64,000 nt of DNA. Source: Bacillus sp. Marseille-Q1617. Lineage in GTDB: Bacteria > Bacillota > Bacilli > Bacillales > Bacillaceae_B. The stretch is from contig NZ_CAHJXM010000001.1 of the NCBI RefSeq assembly GCF_903645295.1, positions 682,001-746,000 of the forward strand, in the 5' to 3' direction. Of this stretch, positions 4,440 through 62,650 are shown one piece after another. The notes under the pieces are model-generated. The model saw nothing but the letters and a program-made list of their open reading frames with translations. It did no database searches and was not told the DNA's origin. The position numbers and the translations under genes are program-made. Numbering within the stretch: position 1 is the first letter of the stretch; every line of letters starts with the position of its first letter.

Positions 4440-4695
4440 TATTTTGGTTATTTCTGTTAATTTCAGCATAAATCCAAAAAAGTCAGCATAAATCCTCAAA
4501 ACATCAGCATAAAACATAATGGAACCCGGCTCTAAGGGATTTGGAGAGCCGTGGAGGTCATTCTTGCAGCTGCTAATAACGCGATTCAATTCAATATGTG
4601 CCTTTTTCAAGCAAATTTTTAAAAATACATGCCACTTTCCCAATTTACATTCCGCATTTTGATTTTTCATTCCACTTGTCGAAAAATCCTTAAGC
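4440..4695. repeat. 20-bp-period intergenic array, copy 1 (types A and B)
   Basis: No gene is supported here. CAGCATAAA cores start at 4464, 4484 and 4505 (type A). After a 100-bp linker, cores of the xCxAC type (GCAAA, GCCAC, TCCGC, TCCAC) start at 4611, 4631, 4651 and 4671 (type B), an exact 20-bp step. The same A-then-B order occurs at 15.85 kb and 46.19 kb. A 94-codon minus-strand frame crosses it but is only a translation of the repeat. Confidence 0.85.
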
Positions 4696-15651: not shown

Positions 15652-15714
15652 GTTAGAGTATGGGTGGAGAGGTAGTGGCTTTTGGAGATGGGGTACCTGT
15701 CCCAAAGGGTTTCG

Positions 15715-16175
15715 GAGGTAGAGCGGGGGCGGGTCCCGTTCTACCTTTTTGTTTTACACTGGCAGAATCCTTACCGGCTGACGCTTAGGCAAATTATGTA
15801 GATGAGTAAAATGGGGACTACCACTGTCCAGAATTGGCTATTTCTGTAAAAGTCAGCATAAAGTGAAATAATTCAGCATAAATCTCTAAAAGTCAGCATA
15901 AACTCATTTTTTTCAGCATAAATCAAAATATTTCAGCATAAATCCTGAAAATTCAGCATAAATCGTAACAGAGCCAGTCAAAGGGGGATTTGAGGACCGA
16001 TGAACCGGTTCTTATTGCTGCAAATCAAGCAATTCATCCACTTTAAACCTTTTTCAAGCAACATTTTAAAAATACATGCTACTTTCTAGATTTACGTGCA
16101 ACATTTTGATTTTTCAAACCACTTTTCTCGATATTCATGCAACTTGTCGAAAAATCTTTAAAGAATAGCTTAGCC
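15715..16175. repeat. Long intergenic repeat element, copy 2 (hairpin + type A + type B arrays)
   Basis: This gene-free stretch starts with a terminator-type hairpin (GGTAGAGCGGG / CCCGTTCTACC), then six CAGCATAAA cores at exactly 20-bp steps (15854, 15874, 15894, 15914, 15934, 15954). After a linker, six xCxAC cores follow at 16037, 16058, 16078, 16098, 16118 and 16139. It is nearly identical to 46062-46495. The 5-mer and 9-mer cores are conserved while the bases between drift. Confidence 0.9.
15717..15750 (+). terminator. Terminator after the TOMM locus
   Basis: GGTAGAGCGGG pairs with CCCGTTCTACC, followed by TTTTTGTTTT. It is carried inside the repeat element and recurs at 46.06 kb. Confidence 0.8.
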
Positions 16176-20339: not shown

Positions 20340-20370
20340 ATTCTTAATTTTCTATATGAAACAATTGGCT

Positions 20371-20657
20371 ATGAAGAGAAGAGTAATTTTGATTCATTAT
20401 TTTCAGAGAGCTCCGGCTGGTGAAAAGGAGTAATAATAATCTTAATGAAAAAAGACTTGGAGCTTCGTGCGGATTTAAGAATTTTCTTAATGATGCGGCG
20501 ACGGGATCTCCCGTTATAGAGATAGGGTATAATCAAACATAAAATTGCCGTACCCGAAGAGGTTGATATGGTGACATATCAATAAACTGAGGTGGTACCA
20601 CGGAGATATAACTCCCGTCCTCAAGATGAATAATCTTGGGGGTGGGAGTTTTTTTGT
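20371..20657 (+). promoter_or_regulatory. T-box riboswitch (lysine type)
   Basis: Stem I begins with GAAGAGAAGAGTAA and includes the AGAGAGCTCCGGCTGGTG region. Its 3' side holds GAAAAAAGAC, whose AAA or AAG triplet is a plausible lysine specifier. The T-box sequence TGAGGTGGTACCACGG lies at 20588-20603, and the competing terminator, with arms AACTCCC and GGGAGTT plus a T-run, ends at 20657. Uncharged tRNA-Lys should stabilise the antiterminator and switch on the lysyl-tRNA synthetase downstream. Confidence 0.9.
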
Positions 20658-45946: not shown

Positions 45947-46061
45947 TGGTAGGGATTTTCTCTACTCCTACGTTAATAAATACTTGTAACAAGGCGGAGA
46001 GGGAATAAGAAGAGATCCATAAGCATATGGCCAAACCGATGGTGTTTTTCCTGAATTTTTG

Positions 46062-46495
46062 GTAGAGCGGGGACGAGCCCCGTTCTACCTTTATATTTTA
46101 CACAGGCAAAATCCTTACTGGACGCTTAGGGAAATTAAGTAAAATTGGCACCACCGCTGGTCTGGATTGGTTATTTTTGTAAAACTCAGCATAAAGTGAA
46201 ATAATTCAGCATAAATCTCTAAAAGTCAGCATAAACTCATTTTTTTCAGCATAAATCAAAATATTTCAGCATAAATCCTGAAAAGTCAGCATAAATCGTA
46301 ATAGAGCCAGTCAAAGAGGGGATTTGAGGACCGCTGAACCGGTTCTTATTGCTGCCAATCAAGCAATTCATTCCACTTTGAACCTTTTTCAAGCAACATT
46401 TTAAAAATACAAACCACTTTCTAGATTTACGTGCAACATTTTGATTTCAATCCACTTTTCTCGATATTCCTGCAACTTGTCGAAAAATCTTTAAT
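46062..46495. repeat. Long intergenic repeat element, copy 3
   Basis: Near-duplicate of 15715-16175. The hairpin GGTAGAGCGGGG / CCCCGTTCTACC comes first, then six CAGCATAAA cores at 46187, 46207, 46227, 46247, 46267 and 46287 (exact 20-bp step), a linker, and xCxAC cores at 46372, 46393, 46413, 46433, 46451 and 46472. No gene is supported between 45839 and 46747. Confidence 0.9.
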
Positions 46496-56627: not shown

Positions 56628-56754
56628 TGAAAAACTTCCTTTCTAATAAAAGTAGATATATAGAACTATACCCAGTTTTTGGGTGTTCAACCTTTAAGTA
56701 ACATTTTCGTTTTGGGCTGCTTAGGGAAAAGAGTATGGATAATTTTGATAAAGT

Positions 56755-56845
56755 CAGCATTAAACGAAAAAATTCAGCATAAATTCATATTTTTCAGCAT
56801 AAATCCAAATTAGTCAGCATAAATAGCCAAAAGTCCGCATAAAAA
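56755..56845. repeat. 20-bp-period array, copy 4 (type A only)
   Basis: CAGCATAAA-type cores at 56755, 56775, 56795, 56815 and 56835 (the last is CCGCATAAA), an exact 20-bp step. No type B part follows. Confidence 0.9.
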
Positions 56846-62281: not shown

Positions 62282-62379
62282 ATAGAAAGATAGATGTTTG
62301 GGCTGCATATTCGGCGAAGGGTATACCTTTAGGGACAGGCATTTGTACAAAATGACGGATTGGGTATTTTTATTAAAGT

Positions 62380-62650
62380 CAGCATAAAACGAATTAATTC
62401 AGCATAAATCAGAAAAAGTCAGCAAAAATGGTCTGAAAGTCCGCATAAAAGAAAAACAGCCAGGCCCCCTGCCTTGTAACAGGGGACCTGGCTTGGAAGG
62501 GTAGAGGTATTGAGCTGTAAAGAAAACTCGACAAGTGGCTCGATTATCTTACAAAGTGGCGCAATAATCAGGATTCCGGTGCAATTATCCGGAAAGCGGC
62601 TCAATTATTCTGTTTTCGGCGCAATTATCCAGAAACCGGCGCAATAAATA
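62380..62650. repeat. 20-bp-period arrays, copy 5 (type A, hairpin, type C)
   Basis: Type A cores lie at 62380, 62400, 62420 (CAGCAAAAA) and 62441 (CCGCATAAA). A terminator-like hairpin (62456-62492) follows, and then a different unit, GG(C/T)GCAATTATCC, whose GGC/GGT triplets end at 62539, 62560, 62580, 62600, 62620 and 62640, again in 20-bp steps. No gene is supported between 62282 and 62752. Confidence 0.9.
62456..62492 (-). terminator. Terminator for the minus-strand methyltransferase
   Basis: AGCCAGG.CCCCTG / CAGGGG.CCTGGCT stem. The T-run (GTTTTTC) is on the minus-strand side. Confidence 0.7.

What the first reader, a model, noticed from the sequence alone, without database searches (positions are those of the whole stretch)
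15715..16175. Modular 20-bp-period intergenic arrays with A and B units
CAGCATAAA cores repeat at exactly 20 bp (six times), then, after a linker, a different core (xCxAC, mostly GCAAC) repeats at 20-21 bp six times. Cores stay fixed while the bases between vary, which suggests selection on a binding site every two helical turns on one DNA face, not simple replication slippage. The step is not a multiple of three, so it is not coding. I know of no described family like this, but I cannot search.
Basis: partly seen in the sequence, partly recalled or inferred. Interest (0 to 1): 0.78.

Follow-up and report, generated by a model that had tools for sequence, protein, structure and literature searches.

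The report
Phased 20-base DNA arrays between genes
Between genes of Bacillus-like bacteria lie many short DNA arrays whose key motif recurs every 20-21 bases; they look like sites for proteins that read one face of the double helix, although no such protein is known and past copying as mobile repeats is not excluded.

Summary
Six identical CAGCATAAA cores lie at exact 20-bp steps, followed by six degenerate cores at 20-21 bp. It is not a local oddity. The 64-kb window holds five CAGCATAAA arrays; 15717-16161 has a second copy (90%) and a partial third (75%). In a related genome, [Bacillus] enclensis (contig 1, 1.55 Mb), a motif-free scan gives 23 arrays at lag 20 and 16 at lag 21 (38 after merging); most other lags give none. 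They form several dispersed families with different core words, 35 of 38 between genes, over-represented between convergent genes. No RNA structure of the arrays was found. In one family, anchor sites before and after the array sit at near-fixed distances across weakly conserved linkers, which points to a helically phased protein-DNA scaffold. Arrays are usually better conserved between two genomes than the DNA beside them (six of nine pairs), but dispersed copies are as alike as positional counterparts, so homogenising or copying may contribute. IS21/DDE, REP/RAYT and TIGR-Tas readings were tested and not supported. The binding protein and the function are unknown. I call it a new variant of interspersed intergenic repeats; a non-autonomous mobile element is the main rival.

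The parts
15714..15748 (+). intrinsic terminator-like hairpin upstream of the array (15 pairs, then TTGTTTT)
   Evidence: a similar hairpin at 46061-46089
15853..15972 (+). A array: six 20-bp units, TCAGCATAAA + 10 variable bases
15973..16036 (.). linker between the two arrays; in the block compared (15966-16036) 68 of 71 aligned columns match the copy at 46 kb
16037..16146 (-). B array: six degenerate units, AAAGTGG-type on the - strand, steps 20-21 bp
16147..16161 (-). leader of the B array (AAAGATTTTTCGACAA-type on the - strand)
   Evidence: 14 of 14 aligned columns match the 46-kb copy, 2 gaps
46061..46089 (+). terminator-like hairpin of the second copy
46186..46305 (+). A array of the second copy, six units; in the block 46177-46298, 119 of 122 bases match the first copy
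46371..46495 (-). B array and leader of the second copy
4463..4513 (+). A array, three units (steps 20 and 21 bp)
4600..4690 (-). B-type array and leader of the third, diverged copy
56754..56843 (+). A array, five units, the outer ones degenerate
62379..62450 (+). A array, four units, some degenerate; the orthologous locus in G022 aligns with a 20-nt (one-unit) gap
62516..62645 (+). third family: leader with TCGACAAG, then GTGGCGCAATTATC-type units every 20-21 bp; conserved at the orthologous locus of G022

Best explanation
Each array is probably a helically phased DNA scaffold. A sequence-specific DNA-binding protein, perhaps a different one per family, contacts one core per 20-21 bp (two turns), so that several molecules line up on one face; a leader site anchors one end. 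The arrays sit between genes and would act at the DNA level, for example as chromosomal landmarks, insulators or supercoil/nucleoid sites, in the way BIMEs are thought to (recalled). Shown here: phase, families, intergenic placement, near-fixed geometry across weakly conserved linkers in one family, conservation above neighbouring DNA in most pairs compared, no RNA-structure signal for the arrays. Inferred: that a protein binds, that binding is cooperative, that selection rather than copying keeps the arrays alike, and the function. The copies were spread at some time by an unknown process.
For: Lag 20/21 dominates the motif-free scan of G002 C1: 23 and 16 arrays; the other lags from 11 to 60 give 0-5, apart from the harmonics 39-42 (3, 14, 6, 7); order-4 Markov sequence gives none. 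G022, 400 kb: 8 and 4; other lags up to 39 give 0 or 1. TTGATAAT family, 19 elements: palindrome ATAC-N8-GTAT in 15, followed by a 22-nt linker in 13 of 15 (21 in 2); unit steps 20, 21, 20, 21 in 13 of 19; then 20 nt to AATACC/ATACCC in 13 of the 17 that have it (19 in 3, 21 in 1); in G022 linker identity is 0.37-0.39 against 0.26-0.27 shuffled, array identity 0.81. Placement, n=35 intergenic: convergent 13 (5.0 expected by bp), divergent 1 (6.8 expected). Six of nine G002-G022 pairs have arrays 0.81-0.93 identical, mostly above their flanks; the window's 62.4-kb arrays persist at the orthologous locus of G022. RNA fold z averages about 0 on both strands; RNAalifold finds no array structure.
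Against: No binding protein identified; no experiment. Dispersed copies are as alike as positional counterparts: for G022 element 378231 the positional match is 0.91, other G002 copies 0.89 and 0.88; for TTGATAAT elements non-positional copies often match as well or better (up to 0.95). So conservation above the flanks need not mean selection at each site. Pooled, the contrast is modest: arrays 871/1020, flanks 1095/1437; three of nine pairs show none (299352; AAGATTA with flanks 0.85; 324363, where G022 has no element), and one has a flank at 0.92. The best pair (342488, 0.93) is syntenic on one side only, across gaps of 3115 and 42 bp. TTGATAAT linkers are slightly above random in G022, and G002's copies are weaker (array 0.57, linkers 0.44). 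Copies are patchy: G017 has no TTGATAAT pair; G002, G022 and G025 have 91, 136 and 88. If a host protein reads each core, each genome needs several; no candidate was found.
Confidence: 0.45

Rival explanations
1. The arrays are recognition sites of non-autonomous mobile elements (MITE-like), copied in trans by an unidentified enzyme; intergenic placement reflects purging elsewhere.
For: Dispersed copies are homologous unit by unit and as alike as positional counterparts; two copies in the window are 90% identical over 447 aligned columns; sister genomes differ in copies, e.g. GTGG 324364 is in G002 and absent at the matching site of G022; copies in a cluster share orientation, e.g. G025 C1 nine + at 729-885 kb, then six - at 970-1300 kb (capped list); IS21 ends carry repeated transposase sites (PMC11208146, passages).
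Against: No target duplication or terminal inverted repeat was noticed in the copies that I inspected by eye; no systematic search was made. Linkers inside the TTGATAAT element have diverged at near-constant length, which simple copying does not give. Among the 14 largest clusters of 231 genes flanking 119 arrays, none looks like a transposase by eye (no domain search). DDE rve: 0 matches in G022, G013 and G018; a strong IstB match only in G001.
Confidence: 0.3
2. The arrays help gyrase or a nucleoid protein wrap DNA where convergent transcription piles up supercoils; the AT/GC phase matters more than the word.
For: Excess between convergent genes; terminator-like hairpins upstream of the two window arrays tested; different core words in one genome share a GC-then-AT layout by inspection.
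Against: Wrapping alone does not demand nine identical bases in every unit, nor conserved spacers.
Confidence: 0.1
3. Neutral tandem arrays made by replication slippage.
For: Whole-unit gaps of 20 nt between related arrays; 41-42 bp and longer higher-order repeats in some arrays.
Against: Fixed cores beside variable spacers; nearly one period only, with many different sequences; near-fixed distances to anchor sites.
Confidence: 0.06
4. Orphan TIGR-like guide arrays or another structured RNA.
For: TIGR arrays also alternate two 8-12-nt repeats with 9-nt spacers (PMC12045711, passages); here adjacent units often alternate too, by inspection. Some single elements fold better than shuffles: 4 of 26 GTGG forward strands have z below -2, and so does 1 of 18 other arrays on its reverse strand.
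Against: Nop domain 0 of 6 genomes; spacers conserved among paralogues; GTGG orientation does not follow the flanking genes; mean z -0.45 forward and +0.46 reverse; no consensus structure beyond a 4-bp hairpin.
Confidence: 0.05

Closest known systems
REP/BIME elements with RAYT transposases
   Same: Short, dispersed, mostly intergenic repeats in families with varying words; each of seven genomes searched has 2-3 Y1 transposase matches
   Different: REPs are palindromes; 0 of 10 Y1 loci hold a 20/21-bp array. Of four Y1 loci printed, L231 and L235 carry GGGACAGG repeats; L234 carries 25-bp-step palindromic arrays
IS21-family transposon ends (IstA sites L1/L2, R1/R2)
   Same: Repeated, closely adjacent transposase sites (PMC11208146, passages)
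   Different: Typically at least two sites per end there, 3-8 units here; no rve match in G022; strong IstB only in G001
Plasmid iterons and operators (recalled)
   Same: Direct repeats of about 20 bp on one face plus an inverted-repeat site
   Different: Many chromosomal copies between ordinary genes; no rep gene was noticed next to them (no domain search)
TIGR arrays
   Same: Alternating short repeats with roughly 9-nt spacers (PMC12045711, passages)
   Different: No Nop-domain protein, spacers conserved among copies
BOX elements of pneumococcus (recalled)
   Same: Leader plus a variable number of internal units
   Different: boxB is 45 bp (recalled); here no RNA fold of the arrays was found

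Membership tests
IS21 transposon ends | istA/istB genes in the genome | tested here: not met
   PF01695: one strong match, in G001 (227 bits); best in G002, G017 and G022 are 35, 34 and 34 bits, all over the 24.1 cut-off but far weaker. PF00665: 0 in G022, G013, G018; 3 in G002, 2 in G001, 2 in G025, 1 in G004
IS21 transposon ends | paired inverted ends around transposase cargo | tested here: inconclusive
   Two same-family inward-facing pairs in G002 C1 were looked at; one flanks ordinary genes, one no called gene. Others not examined
REP/RAYT | palindromic unit | tested here: not met
   Units are direct repeats; mean RNA fold z about 0
REP/RAYT | repeats flank the RAYT gene | tested here: not met
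   0 of 10 Y1 loci (2.4-3.3 kb each) have 20/21-bp arrays
TIGR-Tas | Nop-domain Tas protein | tested here: not met
   0 of 6 genomes; control positive in 4 of 14 known genomes, all archaea
TIGR-Tas | variable spacers | tested here: not met
   TTGATAAT spacer 1 is 0.85 identical among 11 G022 paralogues
TIGR-Tas | transcribed and cut to 36-nt RNAs | not testable with these tools
   needs RNA sequencing
CRISPR | repeats of 24-48 bp with unique spacers | tested here: not met
   10-bp identical core, 20-bp step; repeat size from PMC3733652 (passages)
Iteron-type binding array | direct repeats with a constant helical phase | tested here: met
Iteron-type binding array | bound by a Rep-like protein | not testable with these tools
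   needs binding assays
Rfam RNA families | match to a covariance model at gathering score | tested here: not met
   Only a T-box at 20362-20625 in the window

The most novel reading that the evidence does not exclude
Bacillaceae chromosomes, and perhaps members of other phyla, carry a large, undescribed class of DNA elements: dozens of copies per genome in several families, each with its own core word but the same 20-21-bp two-turn phase and fixed-distance anchor sites, each read by its own protein and kept by selection as chromosome-structuring sites.
Probability: 0.3. Interest if true: 0.88.

Novelty: new variant of a known kind. Interest (0 to 1): 0.7.

Why it matters
If the arrays are protein scaffolds, they are a class of chromosomal DNA sites with several families per genome, whose readers are unknown and can be fished out directly with the array as bait. 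They also offer a natural series of sequences in which core, spacer, phase and number vary separately, so that helical phasing can be tested. If they prove mobile instead, they point to an unidentified copying enzyme in Bacillus-like bacteria.

Tried and rejected
Replication-fork polarity (Ter-like or KOPS-like): a dif-like site was found once in each of four genomes and GC skew changes sign across each. In G025 the TTGATAAT orientation changes between 885 and 970 kb, while 15 of 19 skew slices from 680 to 1280 kb are negative (those at 950 and 965 kb are positive), so polarity by replication alone probably does not hold. The strand bias of the GTGG family (13 of 13 clusters on + in G002 C1) remains unexplained.

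RNA element: GTGG forward strands looked strongly folded, but dinucleotide shuffles gave mean z -0.45 forward and +0.46 reverse, n=26, with 4 of 26 forward strands below -2; of 18 other arrays one (L115, reverse) was below -2. RNAalifold on 16 TTGATAAT copies found only the 4-bp ATAC/GTAT hairpin (energy -0.59 against -0.01, sd 0.03, in column shuffles), which a palindromic protein site would give as well; on 22 GTGG copies it found nothing.

Phage or plasmid origin: 541 bases of the locus had no match in the plasmid or phage collections, nor did 171 bases of the third family in plasmids. Three family patterns had 0 hits in viral contigs. The short CAGCATAAA pair pattern had 18 viral hits; 15 looked like coding or trinucleotide-type repeats on reading, but L010, L019 and L025, which resemble one another, have three or more such cores at about 10- and 20-bp steps in AT-rich DNA and were not followed.

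Other phyla: the one genome-contig scan gave seven stretches; three are Bacillaceae. The Coriobacteriaceae, Nitrospinota, Bacteroidales and Cyclobacteriaceae ones show look-alike 19-21-bp arrays, not followed further.

Literature: ten searches showed no description among the papers listed. In one search the 9-mer stands in 257 papers, of which 20 were listed and none read. Subscription papers are mostly missing from this library.

Array-neighbour genes: 119 arrays and 231 flanking genes (some loci counted twice because G022 stretches overlap); the 14 largest clusters were printed and are orthologues, spurious ORFs read from the arrays, or common families, judged by eye.

Changed on re-checking: one search showed that dispersed copies match as well as positional ones, so I lowered the scaffold reading from 0.5 to 0.45 and the novel case from 0.33 to 0.3, and raised the mobile rival from 0.27 to 0.3. 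An earlier count said 14/17 for the 20-nt right linker; one search gives 13 of 17.

Full report
Observation. The array at 15854-15962 has six CAGCATAAA cores at exactly 20 bp. In register, TCAGCATAAA is invariant in 6 of 6 units and none of the other ten columns is; the longest chain in 2000 mononucleotide shuffles was 2. The second series (16037-16139) has six cores at 20-21 bp but is degenerate. On the - strand it is an AAAGTGG-type array with a leader AAAGATTTTTCGACAA at its outer end. The window holds four more A arrays (4464, 46187, 56755, 62380) and a third array type at 62536-62645, GTGGCGCAATTATC. The stretch 15717-16161 recurs at 46061-46494 (89.9% over 447 aligned columns), and part of it at 4461-4677 (75%). 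Between the first two copies the A array is 119/122 identical, the linker 68/71, the B array 102/108, and the part before the array 98/116.

A class, not a locus. No genome is held for the window. The pattern of three CAGCATAAA cores at 19-21 bp gave seven genome-contig stretches, three in Bacillaceae: Metabacillus mangrovi twice, [Bacillus] enclensis once. In 101 relatives of G002 (itself included) an exact pair of cores occurs in 3. Because a motif search sees only its motif, I fetched contig 1 of G002 (1,554,029 bases) and searched for any tandem array of at least three units (9-mer, at most one mismatch between successive units, low-complexity filter). Counts: lag 20, 23; lag 21, 16; lag 25, 5; harmonics 39-42: 3, 14, 6, 7; lag 60, 4; lags 15, 18, 22, 24, 27, 33 and 48: 1, 1, 1, 1, 2, 1 and 2; every other lag from 11 to 60: 0. 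Order-4 Markov sequence of the same length: 0 at every lag. The window gives 5 at lag 20, 1 at lag 27 and 3 at lag 40; 400 kb of G022 gives 8 at lag 20 and 4 at lag 21, with 1 each at 24, 27, 33 and 48 and 5, 10, 1 at 40-42; 144 kb of relatives' loci fetched by DNA similarity gives 3 at lag 20, 2 at lag 21, 3 at lag 25, 2 at lag 40 and 1 at lag 42; 50 kb of E. coli K-12 gives none. The E. coli sample is small.

Families. The core words in these genomes include CAGCATAAA, GTGG(C/A)NYGTAWWT, GGATCRTAWWT, GGAGCATAAAT, GTGGCGCAATTATC, TCGCCCTTAWAT, TTGATAATA, AAAGATTA and, in M. mangrovi, GTCAGCAATTA. By inspection they share a layout of a GC-bearing word followed by an AT block, and adjacent units often alternate (GTAAAT/GTATTT; 20, 21, 20, 21). 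Families have leaders: AAAGATTTTTCGACAA before GTGG arrays (the search required its core), a TCGACAA leader before 4 of 5 GCGCAATTA arrays and one GATC array; an AGAATNATTCT palindrome before 10 of the 19 GATC/GAGC rows.

Placement. Of 38 merged arrays in G002 C1, 35 lie between genes called by a home-made gene finder. By intergenic bases one expects 5.0 convergent, 6.8 divergent and 23.3 same-strand; observed 13, 1 and 21. In the overlapping motif-based list, 21 of 61 clusters are convergent and 3 divergent. In the window, the 15.8-kb and 46.2-kb arrays follow a terminator-like hairpin; the other three were not tested. GTGG clusters are + in 13 of 13 whatever the flanking genes.

Conservation. 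Nine G002-G022 pairs were aligned: 871/1020 identical in arrays, 1095/1437 in the adjoining flanks, and 0.67-0.71 for unrelated DNA under the same aligner. Six pairs have arrays at 0.81-0.93; the clearest are 313024 (0.92 against flanks 0.76 and 0.75) and 342488 (0.93 against 0.79 and 0.71; syntenic on one side only). Against the trend: pair 324363 has no element in G022, the AAGATTA pair has flanks at 0.85, pair 299352 (0.78) does not stand out, and 254141 has a right flank at 0.92. A check made last limits the inference: dispersed copies match as well as positional ones. For GTGG, the positional partner is the best or joint best match for 4 of 6 G022 elements, often by a small margin; for TTGATAAT, where 3 of 12 G022 elements have a positional partner, non-positional copies often reach 0.90-0.95. 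Homogenising or recent copying could therefore produce part of the contrast. The securest orthologue is the window's own 62.4-kb locus, which has the same gene families on both sides in G022. There the GCGCAATTA array is 0.70-0.90 identical per 30-column block while most intergenic blocks outside the arrays are 0.23-0.60, and the A array differs by a 20-nt gap.

Fixed geometry. For the TTGATAAT family I took all 19 elements with at least four units in G002 C1 and the G022 stretch. A palindrome ATAC-N8-GTAT (one variant ATGC/GTAC) lies upstream in 15 of 19. Its distance to the first core was not imposed; it is 22 nt in 13 of 15 and 21 in 2. Downstream, AATACC or ATACCC follows in 17 of 19, at 20 nt in 13, 19 in 3 and 21 in 1. 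In G022 the linkers are 0.37-0.39 identical (shuffled 0.26-0.27) and the arrays 0.81 (shuffled 0.34); in G002 the contrast is weaker (arrays 0.57; linkers 0.44, the right ones no better than shuffled 0.45). Near-constant length with little sequence conservation is what protein contacts at a fixed helical phase would leave; copying of whole elements or slippage alone would not. This is the strongest argument for a scaffold, and it rests on one family.

What it is not. RNA structure: no overall signal (exceptions listed under Tried and rejected); no Rfam match at gathering score in the arrays. IS21/DDE. RAYT: 2-3 Y1 matches in each of seven genomes, but 0 of 10 loci with 20/21-bp arrays. At one Y1 locus (L234) I saw palindromic arrays with a 25-bp step, so REP-like arrays exist separately. 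TIGR-Tas: Nop 0 of 6. Phage and plasmid collections: no match to the window's arrays; three other family patterns absent from viral contigs; three related viral contigs with short CAGCATAAA runs were not followed.

Mechanism. I favour a helically phased protein scaffold acting at the DNA level (0.45). The steps from sequence to binding to function are inferred. The main rival is a non-autonomous mobile element (0.3): copies are dispersed, homologous unit by unit, patchy between sisters, and share orientation within clusters. The two may both be true in part: copied in the past, kept by selection now.

Papers. PMC11208146, PMC3733652 and PMC12045711 were seen as passages returned by term search. 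Statements on iterons, BIMEs, gyrase wrapping and BOX elements are recalled.

Noticed in passing
L234 about 1211 and 2052; G002 C1 (joined text) 103283, 183298, 183423, 1256550, 1520630; L101 14393: A second class of arrays with a 25-bp step made of short palindromes with varying words (TGTGCCTGGCACA, TGAGCCTGGCTCA, TGTACCAGGTACA); two of them lie at a Y1 (RAYT-like) transposase locus.
   Followed up: partly
L181-L183, L190: 25-bp-step arrays with TCAGCTGCTGA-type palindromes in other relatives, perhaps the same REP-like class.
   Followed up: no
L231, L235; window 15690 and 46595: GGGACAGG/CCTGTCCC palindromic repeats beside Y1 transposase genes in relatives; GGTACCTGTCCC also stands near two arrays in the window.
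   Followed up: partly
L010, L019, L025 (viral contigs): Three related viral contigs have short runs of CAGCATAAA cores at about 10- and 20-bp steps in AT-rich DNA.
   Followed up: no
G022:C74:282728, G025:C1:517536, G002:C2:888273, G013:C1:1982303: One dif-like site per genome, with a GC-skew sign change across each.
   Followed up: yes
G025 C1 729-885 kb and 970-1300 kb: TTGATAAT arrays are all + in the first stretch (9 loci) and all - in the second (6 loci), apparently within one replication arm; unexplained.
   Followed up: partly
L001, L002, L004, L007: Look-alike 19-21-bp arrays in Coriobacteriaceae, Nitrospinota, Bacteroidales and Cyclobacteriaceae contigs; L004 also has two adjacent arrays with different words.
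   Followed up: no
window 20362-20625: T-box leader (RF00230, 110 bits).
   Followed up: no
L103 9781-10100: Higher-order repeat of about 119 bp that mixes GATC and GAGC units, a sign of block duplication.
   Followed up: no
L112 10277: A 21-bp array ATTCCATCACCTCCGCCCATC of another composition in M. mangrovi.
   Followed up: no
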